Source: Rhyzopertha dominica
Lineage: Eukaryota > Arthropoda > Insecta > Coleoptera > Bostrichidae
Assembly (NCBI GenBank): GCA_025024175.1
Contig: QCXZ01000064.1
Span: 8,618,001-8,682,000 of the forward strand
Reading direction: 5' to 3'
Length of the DNA stretch: 64,000 bases
The position numbers were made by a program, and so were the translations under genes. This document shows, piece by piece, positions 3,339 to 60,710 of this stretch (positions are counted from its first letter, which is position 1; every line of letters begins with the position of its first letter). The notes below the pieces were generated by a model. It worked only from the letters and a program-made list of their open reading frames with translations, was not told where the DNA came from and did not search any database.

Positions 3339-6123
3339 ATATGATTTCTAAATTCTGCTATCAAATTATAGTTGTGTTTTATTAAGGTGTTTACCTCCCT
3401 AAATCTAGCCATTTTAAAATAATTTATATTTTGTAAAAATGTATGGGTAATTTTATTCTTAAAAACATCAACAACTACCTATTTGGTCTTTTTAAGCCAA
3501 ATTTACAGTTTACTACCATACCATAAGGAATAATAAGTTGTCTTACATATATTAAAACATGTAAAACTTATACAGGGTGTTCAAAATTAGGTGCTAAATA
3601 GTTACACCATTTAAACGGCATTAACTTGTTAAATTCAAATGGAAAACCTAGCATTTTTCTTTAAAAACAGATTTATAATTTATTTGTCTTTCGAACACTG
3701 ATGTATTATCCTGTCTCTACAAATTCTTGTGAAAAATGCAGATTTTCATAACGCACACTGTTTTTATTAAATACTGTATTTATCCACTGTATGTATACCT
3801 GACACCTAGCGTTTATAAGAAAATTAGTTAAATCTTAATCCGCTTTTAGCATAAAATAAAAAGATAACAAACAATTTTGCAAATGCTCTTATAAGATAAT
3901 AAACATATGAAATTGTTCTTCTTTTGAACAAACGCTCATTGTACTAGCTCTAAATAATACAAACTATTAACTAAAATTACAAATGAAGTACGTGTTGCAA
4001 ACAGATATTAATAACCGATTAAAAATAAGTGACAATAACTCATTGATCTTCAGTTTAAATAGGACTTTGATAGTGCAGTGGTTAACACGTTTGGCTAGTA
4101 TTCAAAAGTTCCCGAGTTCGAATCCCGGTAAAAGCTGGCAAAACTTTTTCATAACACAATAGCTATCTCTTATGTTCATTTATAAAAAGCAAATAAGTGA
4201 ACCCATTTCGCTGATAATTAGATTTAATCGAATTGATGACTACGTGAAAAAAATATTTGGTATAGACTGAAAAATTGATTTAGGCAGCATCACCACGTAA
4301 ATGCAGCTGTGCAAAGTCACAGGAAGAACAAAATTAAATTATGAAATAATGACAGTATTTATCTTAAAAACAAAAATTCATATTATAAATATTTTTTATA
4401 TTGAATGTAAGTTTTGTAGCCGCATTTACATCTTTGTTAGTCTTCCTATTTTTCTCTACCAGCTTATGGGAGTATACATCTCGACTTCCTACTACATATA
4501 TGCATGTAATTTAGGTTTAATGGTAGATAAAAAACGCTGGTGAGCACACGTTCGTTTGTTAGTGGGTAGGTCAAACAACCTATATTTCAAGTCGCTCGCT
4601 TCAGCCAGAACCATTAAATAAGGCGCTTGTTAAAGTTTATTGTTGTGTTACTACTTACTCTTTATTCATTCCTTGCCATGCAAAGCCCATTCTCACATAT
4701 AGTAAAAAATGTGTCTTGTAATTAGCAACTACTAGGGAGTATTTAACATACTAAATTTTGGAGCTTTACTTCAGATTTACTTGGATTATAGGAAAGTATC
4801 TGCAGCGATGAAAATTGAACGCCTACTAAGTTGCAACATTCAATTACGCAAATGCAAGAAAAGTAAAATAACTATATCGTTAAGGCTACCTATCCAAAAC
4901 AGTACGTTAAGAACGGCAAGGACATCTTGCCATCGTAGCTAATTACTGTCTAGGATCAGTAGTTTGATTGCGAAGCTAATGAATTTTTTTCTATTAAATG
5001 ATATTAGCAATAATACCTTGTAAAGATTATGGGGGCCGGTAAGGCCATAATATAGATTATAGACTGTTTCTCGAAAAGCTAGAAAAAGTAGAATGACAAT
5101 TATTTGCACACTCTTTGTTAAATGAAACAATTCTTATATCGACCTTTGAAGCATTAGTATCTTAAATTCTTAGAGTTCTAAAAAATTATTTAAAAAATTT
5201 ATCTTGAAACATGGCAAAAGAAATGTTTTTGTTAACTCTTTATTTTTTTAGATTAGAATAATAGGCTGCAGGTATTTAAATTCATCACAGAATCCGTGTG
5301 ATAAGGTAGATAGGTTTAATAGTAAAAGTTCTTCAAACGAAATATTATTTATCGCCACATATATATCACAAAAACATTAAACTTTCGTTGAAGTAATGCA
5401 AAACGACTGTAACGGAAAGCTTGCAAGTGGTATAATCGAAAGTGATACAATTAGGAGTAGGTCATCAAATATAGTTTTATATTTAAAACTGAAATACTTC
5501 GTTGCTTACAGCATGGGTCACTTGTAATGGCAATATTCAAGCACATTATTTGTTAGCAATAAGGAACAACTGCGAGTTATACGGAATCTTCTATTAAACA
5601 AAGATTTAGTTTCAACCAACGTGTAATAAAAAAGAAAACATGAGAACTTGATGTGGAAATTTTGACAACACCAACGTTGACATGAGCCTGCAGTGTGTGC
5701 ACTTTTTAAACCATTCAACTTATCTATATTATTGTACAATGGAGAAATTTGGGCTACTAATTTTATTCTGTAGGTGGTTCTTCCACTATTATGGTGTTTC
5801 AAATTGATATTTGTCTTTGAAATTAGAATTTGTTTTTATTGCATGTGTTAGTTAGATTTACTTATCCCGATTGAGCGTACAACTAACTAGAAGGCGAGTA
5901 GTAATGGAAATTATAGCCATTTTTAAAACTTTATTTAAAAATCACTGGATTTTTGCAGCATTTAGGTACTCTCCACAGATTATTAAATAACGCAACTTGA
6001 GGGTCAACAAAGCAATAATTTTATAATGTCACCCTTGTTGTATAATTTAATTTAGTACATTTTTATTGCTCCTAACATATTTAGCATGTTCTCGTACACA
6101 ACGAATTGCTTTTCTTTTGAAAA
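3339..6123. other. AT-rich DNA, no protein gene seen
   Basis: Only small chance frames are present. A mariner-like terminal sequence (TATACAGGGTGTTC, about 3570) has no visible partner. The only clear object is the tRNA-like sequence at 4064-4136. Confidence 0.6.
4064..4136 (+). tRNA. tRNA-like sequence, probably a tRNA pseudogene or SINE head
   Basis: An A-box-like TAGTGCAGTGGTTAACACG and a B-box-like GAGTTCGAATCCCGG are correctly spaced. A 5-bp anticodon stem encloses a 7-base loop CTAGTAT, which would give anticodon AGT (threonine). The T stem has an A-C mismatch and the acceptor stem (ACTTTGA against TAAAAGC) pairs in only about five of seven positions. The gene is therefore either degenerate or the head of a tRNA-derived SINE. 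The following sequence shows no obvious SINE tail. Confidence 0.5.
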
Positions 6124-19259: not shown

Positions 19260-19435
19260 AAACAGTTACTTAGTTACCAAGCCTTTGACATATAGGTAAA
19301 ATAAGTTCTATGCCGTACTGTCTGCAGTAGACCTAAACTGCACTGATGAGCTGTAATAATAGCGAAATAGATCTATCTGCAGTTGGTTGCGGTGCAGACA
19401 GCACAGCATAGATATGCTTTTTAAACCGTTACTTA
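19260..19435 (+). mobile_element. Short hammerhead-bearing retroposon, copy A
   Basis: An insertion of about 150 bp (19273-19422) lies between AAACAGTTACTTA (19260-19272) and AAACCGTTACTTA (19423-19435), a 13-bp direct repeat with one mismatch, read as a target-site duplication. Its 3' two-thirds is a hammerhead ribozyme. Compared with the 323-bp copy B at 37738-38060 it starts much later, so it looks 5'-truncated. Both copies end shortly after the ribozyme with a short T-rich tail. No coding capacity; it must be moved in trans. Confidence 0.8.
19307..19412 (+). ncRNA. Type I hammerhead ribozyme, copy A
   Basis: Core CTGATGA (19343-19349) and CGAAA (19363-19367) flank helix II, GCTGT/ATAGC with a four-base loop and one G-U pair. 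Helix III is minimal, four pairs (ATAG/CTAT) closed by a two-base loop. The cleavage triplet ATC ends at 19377, so self-cleavage would fall between 19377 and 19378. Helix I is long: AACTGCA pairs with TGCAGTT next to the core, then an internal loop, then GTCTGCA pairs with TGCAGAC, then a weaker outer stem. All invariant core bases are present. Confidence 0.9.
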
Positions 19436-37723: not shown

Positions 37724-38074
37724 TAATAATGATACAGTAAGTGCCGTGGGGGCCTGCTGTCAAATTGAAGTATGCAGTTGCATGCCAATTTGTCAGGCTA
37801 CAGGTCACTTCCTTTAGGAAGTAGTTCCCATTAAGGCAGCTAGGTGGCTTTGTCATCATGTCAGTGTAATGCTGACAGATGGCATTGCCATTCTAATTTC
37901 TTACTTTCATCATACCATTGCTTTGGTATATAAGCAAAACCAGGTCTATGCCGTGTTGTCTACACTAGACCTAAACTGCACTGATGAGCTGTAATGACAG
38001 CGAAATAGTACTATCTGCAGTTGGTTGAGGTGTAGACAGCACAGCATAGACAATGCATTTTAATAATGATACAG
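37724..38074 (+). mobile_element. Hammerhead-bearing retroposon, copy B (longest copy)
   Basis: A 323-bp insertion (37738-38060) is bracketed by perfect 14-bp direct repeats TAATAATGATACAG at 37724-37737 and 38061-38074. The 3' third is a complete hammerhead ribozyme (37944-38051), followed by a short ATGCATTTT tail. Two small hairpins occur in the body (for example ACTTCCTTTAGGAAGT near 37807-37822). No open frame exists, and no clear tRNA, 5S or 7SL head is seen. Long exact duplication plus the 5'-truncated sister copy at 19273-19422 indicates copying through RNA rather than cut-and-paste. Confidence 0.85.
37944..38051 (+). ncRNA. Type I hammerhead ribozyme, copy B
   Basis: Core CTGATGA (37981-37987) and CGAAA (38001-38005) enclose helix II, a perfect GCTGT/ACAGC stem with loop AATG. 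Helix III is ATAG/CTAT with a two-base loop. The cleavage triplet ATC ends at 38015, placing scission between 38015 and 38016. Helix I: AACTGCA with TGCAGTT, internal loop, GTCTACAC with GTGTAGAC, then a further stem to GTCTATG / CATAGAC. Relative to copy A one helix I pair changes G-C to A-T on both strands and a helix II G-U becomes G-C, so pairing is conserved while sequence drifts. Confidence 0.93.
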
Positions 38075-39203: not shown

Positions 39204-40837
39204 CTACATTTGCAATTTTTTTAAAGTATCCAATGGTACAACTGAGATTTCACTGTTTCCATCAGCATGTAGTGTTAGCCCTAATTCTTGTAAAAGAGAC
39301 GAATCAACAACTCCCTGTTTTGTAAGTGATCCTATAATAGACTGATTGGCAGGATTTCCATCACACAAGTTTTTTATAGCTAAGATGCACCACTGCATGA
39401 TAACTAAGACCATCATTAAGGCTAACTTATAAAAAGCTAAATACAAACATCTGACATCTGATTTTTATTATTAGTAAGATTTGAAAAGTTGTTATAAAAG
39501 ATGAGTTACAAAAAAAGGATACAAGGATTGCGAGCATCCATGTTGCAACAGTCCAATATTACAGGTATGATTTCGATTTCTCTCAGCTGTAAATTATAAT
39601 AGGAAGTAATGAAAAAAATAACTTGACAAACTCACCTCATCTTGGTTACGTTTATTCTTCCAACACATGTTACCCAACAACCTGATCAAATCAGCCTTTA
39701 TTCCAAATGCAGGATGATGTTTGATATCATCAGCTGGGCTTGTTAATTCTGATAGCCTCTGAATTGCCGTGAAATTATTTTTTGTGTCCTTCCCCAANAA
39801 ATGAATACTTTTAAGCAAATATGAACAAGTCACCAATAAACTCTTATCATTCTGTAAGTTTTTTAAATATTTCTCAATACCACTTAAAGAAGATAAAACA
39901 GATAACAATTTGCAAGCTTCAACAGGATCGATATTGTCTATATCCTGATCACCAGCCTTTAAAATGCAGTCAGAAGTATCTTTAAAAACCTGTGTGATTA
40001 TTGTTACAAATTCAGCAGGTAGAAGGAAATTGTCCTTATGGATATTTTCAGATACTACATCCAAAATTATCAATCTATGAGTAATTTTAAAAGCCTTATA
40101 ATTAGAATAAAACTCCTTTGTTTGTAGTAAAATTTCCATTATAAACGTTAAATATTCATTATCGTGTTGCTTCTCGTATTCTTCTAAAAAAACATCATAT
40201 ATGTTCTCATCAACATATTTGACATTTCCATCTGTATTCTTCATTACATTGTAAAATAAAGCAGAAGTTATATATGAAAGCTCAGTATGCTGTAAACAGC
40301 ATATAAGAATTGAACCAAGTCTTTCTAAGATAAATTTCCTGTCATTTGCATAAATTGTGCAATTTGAAAGGCTTTGTAAAATAAGTTTTGCTGTATGTAT
40401 GTTGCACATATCAGATGACGTAAATTTTTTTAACAGAAAGTCACAATCATCTACAAAATTTTCATCGTTAACTAAAGCAGTCTGAAATTTTTCGTTAAGT
40501 GCATAGTTCCTTATAGCTTTAAAGACAGAAAGACAAGCATCTGATATTACAGTATCAAAGCAGTTGTTTTTGTTTTCTTTCAATGTAGTTGTTAGTTTGC
40601 AGACTGCATTTACAAGAAACTCTTTCACTTCAGAAGAATAAGCGAACCTGTAAAATAATAACATTAGCATTTCTGAATACATGAAAATCATAAATGTAAC
40701 TACGGTAAAGGTTTTCCACTCATTTTATCAATTGTTATCTTAAAGGTTTTGTCCAGAACCTCAACTATAGGAGACCATTCATTATTGCACAAGCAAGTCT
40801 GAAGATGAGATATGTCGACATCAACGTTTACTTCCAT
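39204..40837 (-). CDS. ATXN10: Ataxin-10
   Basis: Four exons on the minus strand, derived by eye from splice consensus and frame continuity: 40837-40704, 40647-39636, 39586-39523 and 39403-39204, totalling 1410 bases and 469 residues, close to the roughly 475 of mammalian ataxin-10. The start is the first ATG after an in-frame stop (protein begins MEVNVDVD). The C-terminus carries the conserved Atx10 homology domain, recognisable as KADLIRLLGNMCWKNKRNQD, then IPVILDCCNMDARNP, FIMQWCILAIKNLCDGNPAN. The rest is helical, consistent with the armadillo-like fold of the family. Ataxin-10 is a cytosolic scaffold linked to neuronal survival and cytokinesis in animals. One ambiguous base falls in exon 2 (39797). 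Start codon faces PSMA5, 946 bases away. Confidence 0.9.
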
Positions 40838-41783: not shown

Positions 41784-44700
41784 ATGTTTTTAACGAGAAG
41801 CGAATATGACAGAGGAGTAAATACCTTCTCTCCAGAAGGACGATTGTTTCAAGTCGAATACGCAATTGAAGCAATAAAGCTAGGCTCTACTGCTATTGGC
41901 ATTCGCACAAACGAAGGTGTTGTTTTAGCTGTCGAAAAGCGAATCACTTCTCCACTAATGGAACCAACCACAATAGAAAAAATAGTAGAAGTGGAAAAAC
42001 ATATAGGATGTGCATTTTCTGGTCTTATGGCAGACTCACGAACCCTTATAGACAGGTAATTTAATTATTTTTATACAATTAGTTCCATAGTTATTTTGTC
42101 AACTGAGAATTTTTTACAATAATTATTTTTGTTATCTGCTACTTATTTTGATAAATATCTTCACAGAAAGGAAATAATTATCAATGTGTGGTTCTAGTAG
42201 TAGCATAAAATGTTCATGTATGAGATCAGAGATTGTTATTTATCTACATGTTTGGTAGAAAAAAAAACATGTCTGTTAGTGAGTAATAAATATTTTAGAT
42301 ACTTTTATTGATGTTAGATGATAGTTCTGATTTTGGACAGTTCTAGTTCAAAATCTCAGCTTTAGCTGTACCTACTTTTGATTTTGGCTAAAATAATTCA
42401 AACTACTTAATTTTAAAATACGAACTCTGATGTAATAATAAGTAAAATGTAACCTTTCACATAAACAAGGCAACTCTTTAAAAAAAATCATTTAAATACT
42501 GTTTCACATTATCGAGAATCATTTATTTTCGGGTTAAGCATTATATGACTTATAACAATAAATATTTCATGAAAAGAGTAAACTATAATTTGCTGATGTC
42601 ATTGTGTCAAAAACTAAAAAGATAAGCATTTATAATTTATGATACGCCTAAAAGACCTAATTTTACATCAGTTTTTAACTTTAGTAGGTTATGGTGGTTA
42701 ATACAAACTTAATTAACGTAGCAACATGATGTGGTAATGGAGCATTTATAATACAAGTCTACAAAAATATTGGAATATTAAGCAATAGAATTGGCCAAAA
42801 ATTTTTAGCTTCAAAGAGGAATCCATATGCTTGGAGTGGACAACAAAAAGCTACTGCTAGAATGCTTTCAAAAATTTTGACTTATGTAGTTCATGCTATT
42901 GAACTTCAAATTTTCCTTTGTACATAAACATAGCATGGAAATTGCTTAAATTACAGAAACGTTTTGTATCTTTTGCCGGCCATTTTTCCAGCACCTTTAA
43001 GTTGCGCTTAGCCGATGCCGTTCCTGAGGATTTTCGTGGTGGTGATCACTCTCCGAGTTTTGGTGTCGGTGTGAATGTGCTGCATCGGTTCCGTGTGTGT
43101 CCTGAGGAAATTACCCGTGCCGCCAAAAAATTGAAGCCTTCGATGACTATGGGCCCGGATAACATTCCAAGTTTTCTAGTTAAGGACTGTATTTCTTGTC
43201 TGTGTCAACCTCTTAGTTTTATTTTTAACTTAATTTTAACTAATGCTGTATATCCTGCTGCTTGGAAAGTATCGAAAGTTTATCCTGTTTTCAAGTCCGG
43301 TGATAAAACTAACATACAAAATTACAGACCGATTGCTAATATTTGCAATTTTTCGAAATTGTTTGAATGTATTTTATCGGACGTTCTCTACAGTCATTTT
43401 TCGTCATTAACTATTGCTGAACAACATGGTTTTATTAGAGGAAAATCCACTCTAACCAATTTATGTGAATTTGTACAAAATTTGTCAAGTGCACTTGACG
43501 CAAGGTTGCAGGTCGATGTAGTTTATACGGATATGTCTAAGGCATTTGATACTGTGGACGTGGATATTCTCCTGAGCAAGCTGGATAGCATCGGTCTCTG
43601 TGATAATCTTATCAAATTGTTTCATTCAATGTTGCACGGTAGAAGGCAGTTTGTTGAATATAGAAATGTTAAATCCGCACAATTTAATACACCAACTGGT
43701 GTGACACAAGGCTCAATTCTTGGTCCTTTACTTTTCAATATTTACATTAATAGTGTGAAGGAGCAGTTGTCATGTCCGTTTTTGCTATACGCAGATGATT
43801 TAAAAATATTCAATGTAATTAATGCGGAATCTGATTGTGTTGCATTGCAGAAGTCTATTGATTCCTTTGTTCAGTGGTGTAGCCACAATAGACTGACAGT
43901 CAATATCTCTAAATGTTGTGTACTAACGTGTTCTCGCAAAATCAGTAATTTTACTTTTGATTATAATATAAATGGCATTATTTTGGAGAAACGCTCTCGA
44001 GTTCGGGATCTTGGCGTCGTCATTGATAGTCAGCTGTCCTTCTCTCCGCACATTGAAAAAATTTGTGAGGATGCTTTGAAGATGCTCGGTTTTGTAAAGA
44101 GAAATACCAGAGGTTTTGTAAATATTGATACGCTCTTGTCTTTGTATTATTGTTATATTAGAAACAAATTAGAATACTGTTCATTGGTCTGGAGCCCCCA
44201 TTATGACAATCATGTAAATGCCCTGGAAAGAGTTCAACGAAGGGGTTTGAAATATTTGTATTTTGTTAAATATCACGCTTATCCTGTACAAAACTACCCA
44301 CAATGTGTTTTACTTGCAACTTTTCTCAATCTGCGTTAGCCGATAGAAGATGCTACTCTTCTGTTTTGTTTTCGTATAAGTTAGTTGATGGCACTTTTGT
44401 ATCTCAACCATTGTTACAGATGCTAAAATTTCAGATCCCGCGACCAGCTAGTAGATACACTACTCTGTTTAGCTATGAAGTCACTAGTACCATGCATCAC
44501 TTTAATTCTCCACTATATACTGCTGTGAGAAACTATAATAAGTACAACCAAACCCTTGACCTGTTTTGTGGTAGTAGCTTAACATTTAAGAAAATTTCTA
44601 AAANTGTAATAACTGGTATTCCATAGTGTTTATTCCTCGAATTCCACTCTGACTTTATGTACCTTTTTTTTTCTTTTCATTATTGTCTTTGTTATACATA

Positions 44701-60039: not shown

Positions 60040-60710
60040 CTAGTTTAAGCTTTAACCGGTTGTCATTTGTATGCTGACGACTTTCAACTCCAGGTCTTAT
60101 TCCATCCTAGCGATCTTCTTTCGAAATTCTGAGGTCGCTAAAACATTCACTTAAGCTTAATGCTGATAAATGTTCTTGGATGTTATTTGCTAGTGAAGGT
60201 GCATGTTAGAAGCACTGTACTACATCATATTAACATTCAATTAGATAATACTGTATTGAATTTTTTTGATCTTGGGGATTTAGGGCTACATTTAAACTAC
60301 TAGTTGTTAAATCTCATGTTAATAATGTGACTAAGAAGGTTTCCTGTGCTCTTAAAATAATTTATGCTTGAGCTGTTGTCCTGATTCGGGTCTATAGGCT
60401 GTCGTCGGTTGGAATTGCTTCTTAACGTTTCGCTAGCACGAGTGGCAAGCTTCTTCAGACGTCTACATCCAGAACCGGAGATGAAGGACCTCTGAAGAAG
60501 CTCGCCATTCGTGCTAGCGAAACGTTAGGAAGCAATTCCAACCGACGACGGCCTCTAGATCCGAATCAGGACAACAGCTCATCACATAGCCACGAAAGCC
60601 TTAACCTAATTTATGCTTACCGCGTTTTTTTTGTCTATTGGATCAAAATTTATCTACGACGCTTATTATATAGTAAGCGCACGGAAGCCTTAATAATTAC
60701 CCGTATCAGT
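60040..60710 (+). mobile_element. LINE RT fragment, split by a palindromic insertion
   Basis: The plus strand reads CHLYADDFQLQV near 60060-60095 (YADD catalytic box), then SLKLNADKC-like residues in a shifted frame near 60150-60180, then FKSHVNNVTKKVSCALKIIY near 60300-60368. The sequence resumes after the insertion at 60607 (YAYRVFFVYW). Stops interrupt all frames. The upstream RT blocks are missing. Confidence 0.7.
60358..60618. mobile_element. Palindromic element with 12-bp target duplication
   Basis: TAATTTATGCTT is present at 60358-60369 and 60607-60618, and removal of one copy plus the 237-bp insert (60370-60606) restores the LINE coding alignment. The insert is an almost perfect inverted repeat: GAGCTGTTGTCCTGATTCGG... 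(from 60370) pairs with ...CCGAATCAGGACAACAGCTC (to about 60580), arms about 88-90 bp, loop about 32 bp. About 26 extra bases (ATCACATAGCCACGAAAGCC and a few more) follow the right arm, so the element is not symmetric. The long duplication suggests LINE-type integration of a hairpin RNA; alternatively a fold-back DNA element. Confidence 0.88.

What the first reader, a model, noticed from the sequence alone, without database searches (positions are those of the whole stretch)
37944..38051. Complete type I hammerhead ribozyme with minimal helix III (copy B)
All invariant core bases (CUGAUGA, GAAA, AUC cleavage triplet) are present with three correctly arranged stems. Helix I extends over 20 pairs with an internal loop that could form the tertiary contacts needed in vivo; helix III has only four pairs and a two-base loop. 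This architecture resembles hammerheads described in Penelope-like retroelements and small retrozyme-like repeats.
Basis: partly seen in the sequence, partly recalled or inferred. Interest (0 to 1): 0.88.

Follow-up and report, generated by a model that had tools for sequence, protein, structure and literature searches.

The report
Insect retrozyme with hammerhead ribozyme
The hammerhead is real and belongs to a 352-base, non-coding jumping repeat of an insect, probably a beetle, whose copies look as if a small RNA circle had been copied into both cut DNA strands at once, in the way Penelope-like elements insert.

Summary
A type I hammerhead (37944-38051) has an intact core, three helices and compensatory pair changes across copies. 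A second copy lies at 19307-19413. Both belong to a 352-bp non-coding repeat with many copies in this insect genome, closest to the metazoan non-LTR "retrozymes".

Tiling 62 loci plus copy A onto the monomer shows how it inserts. 112 of 115 outward 3' ends fall near two sites, M352 and M198. Of 47 head-to-head copies 43 carry one of each, none the same site twice. Duplications of 12-15 bp flank 43 of 69 copies (1 of 207 mismatched controls). cDNA-like runs reach 1,395 nt. Units of one insertion share variants in both orientations (95%/94%; 70% between loci).

Best reading: the ribozyme helps make a monomeric RNA circle, which a Penelope-like enzyme reverse-transcribes from both cut DNA strands, one start site each. 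A Penelope-like element in the same genome has a similar layout (20 divergent GIY-YIG pairs, 0 convergent; exact tail at one end in 13, at both in 0, though three tail-tail candidates exist elsewhere). Self-cleavage, the circle and the enzyme are inferred. The passages I read do not describe such insertions for retrozymes.

The parts
37724..37737 (+). Left target-site duplication TAATAATGATACAG of copy B
   Evidence: 14-bp exact direct repeat 337 bp apart
37738..38060 (+). Retrozyme copy B: one-sided copy covering monomer positions about M30 to M352, 5'-truncated
   Evidence: Tiling on the 352-bp monomer L008:1492-1843:-
37900..37907 (+). CTTACTTT, second 3'-terminus / inferred reverse-transcription start site (M191-M198)
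   Evidence: 46 of 115 outward 3' termini lie near M198; predicted unpaired in the circular fold
37944..38051 (+). Type I hammerhead ribozyme, copy B; predicted cleavage 38015/38016
37981..37987 (+). Core CUGAUGA
   Evidence: with the rest of the core intact in 62 of 62 core-covering units of the monomer-selected loci and 47 of 63 of the ribozyme-selected ones
37974..38022 (+). Inner helix I with helices II and III and the catalytic core
38052..38060 (+). First 3'-terminus / inferred reverse-transcription start site (...ATGCATTT, M352)
   Evidence: 66 of 115 outward 3' termini lie near M352
38061..38074 (+). Right target-site duplication TAATAATGATACAG of copy B
19260..19272 (+). Left target-site duplication of copy A (one mismatch to the right one)
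19273..19422 (+). Retrozyme copy A, 85% identical to B, M204-M352 only
19307..19413 (+). Type I hammerhead ribozyme, copy A
   Evidence: HH9 28.2 bits E 0.0066; helix I A-U pair of B exchanged for G-C
19423..19435 (+). Right target-site duplication of copy A

Best explanation
The hammerhead belongs to a 352-nt non-coding retroelement, a metazoan non-LTR retrozyme. Steps: (1) transcripts of tandem copies self-cleave at the hammerhead and are ligated into 352-nt circles (inferred). (2) A Penelope-type RT/GIY-YIG endonuclease cuts both DNA strands, staggered by about 13 nt (stagger read from the duplications; the enzyme is inferred). (3) Each 3' end primes reverse transcription inside the RNA at one of two U-rich, predicted-unpaired sites, one strand at M352 and the other at M198; a circle has one of each, so ends are unlike (end pattern shown; the circle as its reason inferred). 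(4) cDNA can run round the circle more than once, giving tandem units of one haplotype (lengths and haplotypes shown). (5) The two cDNAs join through short complementary stretches, sometimes hairpin arms, giving head-to-head copies flanked by a duplication (microhomology and layout shown; the joining step inferred).
For: Hammerhead. Mobility: many copies, eight other matches 100% identical over 108-109 bases of the 110-base probe (three of them at one place), and different duplications at different places. Fixed ends: 112 of 115 outward 3' termini in two windows (M330-372 counted round the circle, and M170-230) that make up 30% of the circle; 38 exactly at M352. Unlike ends: 43 of 47 divergent copies (352,198), 0 homotypic, 4 with another end. 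TSD of 12-15 nt in 43 of 69 clusters, against 1 of 207 when left and right edges come from different loci. Multi-round: 49 of 131 segments longer than 352 nt, 11 longer than 704, longest 1,395. One template: informative-site agreement within a locus 937/984 same orientation and 906/964 opposite, against 103,301/147,972 between loci; also within each sample, 97.9%/97.6% against 91.7% (L041 on) and 88.1%/88.6% against 61.7% (L002-L040). Junction microhomology mean 2.6 against 0.7 at random, 3 nt or more in 23 of 45 against 5.9%. Both start sites unpaired in the circular fold. 5' ends not at the cleavage site: 0 of 19 one-sided; 1 of 49 junctions within M304-309; 6 of 98 junction sides in M298-314, 4.7 expected. 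Same-genome Penelope-like element: 20 divergent, 0 convergent, 1 same-strand GIY-YIG neighbour pairs; exact tail at one end in 13 of the 20, both in 0, neither in 7. A Penelope-like enzyme cuts and extends both strands and starts at two internal RNA sites in vitro (PMC11167929).
Against: No RNA data: circles, cleavage and expression are not shown. The start sites share no sequence with those of the Penelope-like element found here, and no hammerhead motif was seen in its four fetched fragments. Three tail pairs (C53, C136, C137; 0.3 to 3.1 kb apart, facing outward) may be Penelope-like copies with a tail at both ends; I did not read them. In that element unlike ends arise without evidence of a circle, so the rule alone does not prove one. 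Another open U-rich loop of the predicted circle (UUUA, M104-107) is not used as a start. The target-edge signal (AAC 12/43, GTT 15/43, both together 2/43; background 8.2% and 7.7%) could be compared with only four Penelope-like copies, and AAC is visible in two (read). Within-array homogeneity could partly come from later gene conversion or unequal exchange. The microhomology control used random breakpoints that did not pass through the tiling script. No Rfam gathering-level match.
Confidence: 0.56

Rival explanations
1. Same retrozyme and same Penelope-type two-strand priming, but the template is a linear multimeric transcript of a tandem array, not a monomeric circle; the hammerhead plays little part in insertion.
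For: In vitro the Anolis Penelope-like element does not need its hammerhead, and unprocessed RNA is its main substrate (PMC11167929). Tandem arrays that could be transcribed exist here.
Against: A multimer offers several copies of each site, so 352/352 and 198/198 copies would be expected; none of 47. Units of one insertion share one haplotype. The ribozyme core is intact in 62 of 62 units of the monomer-selected loci and changes less than the rest in the other loci (19/832 against 322/6027 and 566/12392), so it appears to matter.
Confidence: 0.22
2. The inverted halves come from one primed synthesis that folds back or self-primes at palindromes, possibly on an antisense RNA, as proposed for rotifer Penelope elements, not from two separate target-primed starts.
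For: PMC3846280 infers self-priming on an antisense template from palindromes at inverted junctions (passages). Here 5 of 49 junctions lie in the hammerhead's helix I arms and 8 of 49 are centred on one body hairpin.
Against: Fold-back gives no reason for a second fixed outer end at M198 next to the duplication. Most junctions are not at such palindromes. The Anolis enzyme extends both target strands in vitro.
Confidence: 0.08
3. The element is moved by a LINE with ordinary target-primed reverse transcription, and the inverted copies are LINE-style twin priming.
For: A LINE-like reverse transcriptase lies 4.9 kb away (42918-44336); TSD length and microhomology joints also fit LINEs (general knowledge).
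Against: As I recall, LINE twin priming starts the second strand at variable internal places; here the second site is fixed and the two-ended form is the commonest (47 of 68 classified copies). A shared LINE 3' tail was not searched for.
Confidence: 0.1
4. Satellite DNA or a fold-back/MITE-type DNA element that happens to contain a hammerhead; the arrangement arises by DNA-level exchange.
For: Tandem units, inverted halves and terminal duplications; hairpins in the body.
Against: The two ends differ (AAAGTAAG... against ...ATGCATTTT), so there are no terminal inverted repeats. Truncated copies still have one fixed end and a TSD (copies A, B, L004). Compensatory changes preserve RNA pairing.
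Confidence: 0.03
5. The hammerhead resemblance is chance.
For: No Rfam match above gathering score.
Against: 0 hits in 200 shuffles, covariation, two copies in the window and many in the genome.
Confidence: 0.01

Closest known systems
Metazoan non-LTR retrozymes (Cervera and de la Pena 2020, PMC7229834)
   Same: Type I hammerhead with internal loop in helix I; 352-bp non-coding, low-GC unit (43.8%) in tandem copies; TSDs longer than 4 bp; the paper reports them from insects too (passage).
   Different: The paper describes tandem repeats and leaves the mobilising enzyme open. In the parts read (Introduction, Results part 1 of 3, Discussion, passages) it does not describe head-to-head copies, two fixed alternative 3' ends or their unlike pairing.
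Penelope-like elements (PMC3846280 passages; PMC11167929 main text part 1 and passages)
   Same: Head-to-head (inverted) insertions with TSD, unlike 3' ends (with and without tail), internal start of reverse transcription on both strands.
   Different: They encode RT and GIY-YIG endonuclease. This element encodes nothing, shares no end sequence with the Penelope-like copies L071-L074, and its TSDs (12-15 bp) are longer than the 8-10 bp given for rotifer copies.
Hammerhead_HH9 (RF02275)
   Same: Best Rfam match to both copies; 18 genome matches up to 46.8 bits (58 of 34,703 candidates scored). Of the four fetched, three (L075-L077) form another hammerhead family here.
   Different: Below gathering score in all matches seen; the aligned loop of helix I and helix III differ.
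LINE-mobilised SINEs (general knowledge)
   Same: Short, non-coding, TSD, 5'-truncated copies.
   Different: No RNA-gene-like part found in the element at Rfam's gathering scores; two alternative 3' ends on opposite strands.
pDo500 satellite of Dolichopoda cave crickets (PMC2837043; search listing and abstract start only)
   Same: Insect repeat with a hammerhead.
   Different: Described as satellite DNA; insertion structure not compared here.

Membership tests
Metazoan non-LTR retrozyme | Canonical type I hammerhead with long helix I and internal loop | tested here: met
   loop-loop tertiary contacts not tested
Metazoan non-LTR retrozyme | Short repeats (150-450 bp, low GC) in tandem | tested here: met
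   352-bp unit, GC 0.438; tandem units
Metazoan non-LTR retrozyme | Non-autonomous: no coding capacity | tested here: met
   longest ORF 42 aa in the monomer read round
Metazoan non-LTR retrozyme | TSD longer than 4 bp, no LTR | tested here: met
   12-15 bp in 43 of 69 clusters; single-unit copies without LTRs. PBS/PPT not looked for.
Metazoan non-LTR retrozyme | Expressed as self-cleaved linear and circular RNA | not testable with these tools
   no RNA data
Penelope-like element | ORF with RT and GIY-YIG endonuclease | tested here: not met
   it is not a PLE
Penelope-like element (mode of insertion only) | Head-to-head copies with two unlike 3' ends and TSD | tested here: met
   similar pattern in the resident PLE, with three possible tail-tail exceptions there
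Penelope-like element (mode of insertion only) | Shared RT start-site sequence with a resident PLE | tested here: not met
   no similarity to L071-L074 ends; other PLE families of this genome not compared
Minimal PLE-type hammerhead | Helix III absent or without non-conserved nucleotides | tested here: not met
   four helix III pairs in 98.4% of cells
Rfam hammerhead families (clan CL00010) | Score at or above curated gathering threshold | tested here: not met
   28.0 and 28.2 bits against 52 for HH9

The most novel reading that the evidence does not exclude
The genomic copies are direct records of a monomeric RNA circle reverse-transcribed from both cut DNA strands at once by a Penelope-like protein: the circle has exactly two start sites, each DNA end takes one, cDNA may run round the circle several times, and the two cDNAs join by microhomology. 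The hammerhead's role is then to make the circle, and animal retrozymes are parasites of Penelope-like elements.
Probability: 0.43. Interest if true: 0.78.

Novelty: new variant of a known kind. Interest (0 to 1): 0.62.

Why it matters
Which enzyme moves animal retrozymes, and whether their RNA circles are the true intermediates, has been left open. The 2020 paper proposes Penelope-like elements as a strong candidate from shared hammerheads, tandem copies and co-occurrence, and a 2024 review still lists LINEs or Penelope-like elements. The end pattern here gives structural evidence for Penelope-type insertion and a sharp prediction: two named start sites, one for each DNA strand. It can be tested in any genome with retrozymes and in a purified-protein assay.

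Tried and rejected
Cleavage-site termini: many BLAST rows starting at query position 303 looked like ends at the cleavage site, but most of the loci checked show intact upstream sequence. I take the rows as clipping of the scored region and dropped the idea. Later tallies show no such enrichment.

Shared HHR or end sequence with the resident Penelope-like element: not found in four fetched copies. One 36-bp retrozyme-like fragment lies beside L072 but outside the element.

Spatial closeness of the two start sites in the circular fold: graph distance 29, reached by 17.6% of position pairs with the same offset; not notable.

A loose regex for hammerheads gave 143 matches including unrelated sequence. 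For the alignment (32 sequences) I took copies A and B and 30 of the printed rows at 89% or more identity to B, leaving out indel-shifted rows and rows below that; one search's 'core intact' count is not used.

One-sided copies starting at M185-204: 6 of 19, p between 0.0005 and 0.004 by the null chosen. The range was picked after seeing the data; kept as a hint only. Two of the 21 one-sided rows (the M198-ended L031 copy and a 73-nt L028 fragment) were left out of that count.

Target-edge tally: one search had two of 43 rows (L010, L014) in the wrong orientation; one search corrects it (AAC 12, GTT 15).

Literature: one search lists 8 papers with both 'retrozyme' and 'inverted'. I read passages of three of them and only the listing for the others. 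Searches were read as listings with abstract starts, apart from the papers named. 'Not described for retrozymes' means not in these passages. PMC4209133 and PMC5785218 are not held.

Target-motif comparison on the 80 exact Penelope-like tail ends could not be finished: the AAC-N13 pattern did not complete. A bacterial-type promoter scan of the element is not informative here.

Full report
What is there. The bases at 37944-38051 form a type I hammerhead with every core base in place. The sequence folds far more stably than shuffled sequence (z -8.7), although the minimum-energy form pairs part of the core with the helix III strand. A strict descriptor finds two such ribozymes in the window, copies A and B, and none in 200 dinucleotide shuffles. 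Rfam gives only sub-threshold matches, Hammerhead_HH9 at 28.2 bits for A and 28.0 for B, gathering score 52. Across 32 copies of the family 93.4% of the pairing cells are kept, against at most 45.5% when partners are slid. Two pairs show frequent compensatory exchange, one in helix I (15 G-C, 13 A-U) and one in helix II (24 G-C, 6 A-U), and one further pair shows it once. Cells paired, cells changed on both sides and the covariation score exceed all 500 shuffles; the number of such pairs (179/500) and of pair types (395/500) do not. The outermost pair is broken in 28 of 31 copies.

Where it sits. The window is part of a 479-Mb genome in 138 contigs. An ataxin-10-like frame of the window (39597-40691, minus strand) has 33 protein matches; the ten or so with a species name are all insects and most are beetles, at 31-40% identity (best named: Aquatica leii, 36%). 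The host is an insect, probably a beetle; the species is not known.

The repeat unit. The ribozyme probe gave 40 matches, with 40 of 70 first-look candidates scored. The full monomer (L008:1492-1843 minus, 352 bp, 43.8% GC, no frame over 42 aa) gave 138 matches from 40 scored of 2,431 candidate regions. These counts are bounds, not a census. Copy B is a one-sided copy (M30 to M352) between two 14-bp duplications. Copy A is more diverged and shorter (M204 to M352), between 13-bp duplications with one mismatch.

How copies are built. I tiled 62 loci plus the region of copy A onto the circularised monomer with a Viterbi script that allows strand switches. Of 68 classified clusters 47 are head-to-head, with both outer ends 3' ends, and 21 run one way. 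112 of 115 outward 3' ends lie near M352 (66) or near M198 (46) and 3 lie elsewhere; the two windows used make up 30% of the circle, and 38 ends are exactly at M352. Of the 47 head-to-head clusters 43 have one end of each kind. None has two of a kind. Four have another end (L014 first cluster, which is cut by the edge of the fetched stretch, L025, L028, L036). Loci were chosen by similarity to the ribozyme or the whole monomer, so copies with two M198 ends and no ribozyme would be under-sampled; copies with two M352 ends would not. Duplications of at least 12 bp were found for 43 of 69 clusters (lengths 12 to 15, mostly 13 or 14), against 1 of 207 when the right edge was taken from another locus.

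What the template was. 49 of 131 segments are longer than one unit and 11 longer than two. At 21 informative sites, units of the same insertion agree in 95.2% of comparisons when they run the same way and 94.0% when they run opposite ways, against 69.8% between loci (182 units, 63 loci); the contrast holds within the monomer-selected loci (97.9%, 97.6%, 91.7%) and the ribozyme-selected ones (88.1%, 88.6%, 61.7%). Both halves therefore look copied from one RNA. The 5' ends and junctions do not sit at the ribozyme's cut site (0 of 19 one-sided; 1 of 49 junctions within M304-309; 6 of 98 junction sides in M298-314 with 4.7 expected), which speaks against linear cleaved monomers as the usual template. 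Two cDNAs of the same sense can join only through inverted complementary stretches. The junctions fit this: mean microhomology 2.6 nt against 0.7 at random, three or more in 23 of 45 against 5.9% (the control breakpoints were random, not tiled). Five of 49 junctions lie in the ribozyme's helix I arms and eight are centred on one body hairpin. In the predicted fold of the circle both start sites lie in open U-rich stretches; another open one, UUUA at M104-107, is not used. A circle with one M352 site and one M198 site would explain why the same site is not used twice. This last step is inference.

Which enzyme. A Penelope-like protein of Anolis cuts and extends both strands and starts inside its RNA at two adjacent sites (PMC11167929; abstract, main text part 1 and passages). 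Rotifer Penelope elements are described as most often head-to-head, with a tail optionally on one of the inverted ends and TSDs of 8-10 bp where given; the authors favour self-priming on an antisense template (PMC3846280, passages), which I list as a rival. In this genome GIY-YIG matches (144 at E up to 1e-3, 150 of 2,080 candidates scored) include 20 divergent, no convergent and one same-strand neighbour pair within 6.5 kb among the 133 I entered. Of the 20, 13 carry the exact 19-nt tail pattern at one end, none at both, 7 at neither; one of the 7 has a variant tail at one end (L073). Against this, three outward-facing tail pairs (C53:16179514 and 16180320; C136:40853896 and 40854208; C137:17356911 and 17359983) may be copies with two tails; I did not read them. 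Four Penelope-like copies were read: ends differ by a tail of about 40 nt, with duplications of 14-16 bp found in three. The start-site sequences are not shared with the retrozyme. At the retrozyme's target edges AAC (12 of 43) and GTT (15 of 43) are over-represented (background 8.2% and 7.7%), but both occur together in only 2; AAC appears at the edge of two of the four Penelope-like copies (read), too few to judge.

Is the ribozyme maintained? In the monomer-selected loci the 13 core positions examined show 0 changes in 829 cells and all 62 core-covering units are intact, against 32 of 5,904 in the rest of the ribozyme and 186 of 14,768 in the body. In the ribozyme-selected loci 47 of 63 units are intact and 19 of 832 core cells changed, against 322 of 6,027 and 566 of 12,392. 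Since both samples were picked by similarity, this is supportive, not a test of selection.

Known or new. The element falls within the metazoan non-LTR retrozymes (PMC7229834; Introduction, Results part 1 of 3, Discussion and passages read). What I did not find described for retrozymes, in the papers and passages named, is the two-site, head-to-head insertion pattern. The authors of that paper proposed Penelope-like elements as a strong candidate helper, and a 2024 review still gives LINEs or Penelope-like elements (passages). This case turns that proposal into a testable one.

Shown: the ribozyme's structure and covariation, the repeat unit, the two fixed ends, their unlike pairing in the copies examined, the duplications, the shared haplotypes and the microhomology. 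Inferred: self-cleavage, circularisation, Penelope-like protein as the enzyme, and the circle as the reason for the unlike ends.

Noticed in passing
60430-60520: Hairpin of about 90 nt, matching Rfam mir-3688 at 47.8 bits (gathering 84); could be a short inverted-repeat element.
   Followed up: no
42918-44336: LINE-like reverse transcriptase frame of 473 aa (RVT_1, E 1.4e-29).
   Followed up: partly
39597-40691 (minus): Ataxin-10-like frame; the matches that bear a species name are all insects, most of them beetles.
   Followed up: partly
4064-4136: tRNA match at 44.1 bits with four non-standard pairs; perhaps a tRNA relic or a SINE head.
   Followed up: no
L075, L076, L077 (and perhaps L078): Another hammerhead family in the same genome, with different flanks, up to 46.8 bits against HH9.
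   Followed up: partly
L071-L074: Penelope-like copies with head-to-head layout and a tail of about 40 nt at one end only.
   Followed up: yes
G000 C53:16179514-16180338, C136:40853896-40854226, C137:17356911-17360001: Outward-facing pairs of Penelope-like tail ends that may be copies with a tail at both ends.
   Followed up: no
M98-M121 of the monomer (window 37807-37830): Inverted junctions are commoner around the ACTTCC/GGAAGT hairpin: 33 of 98 junction sides fall in M80-134 (15.3 expected), 8 of 49 junctions are centred on it.
   Followed up: partly
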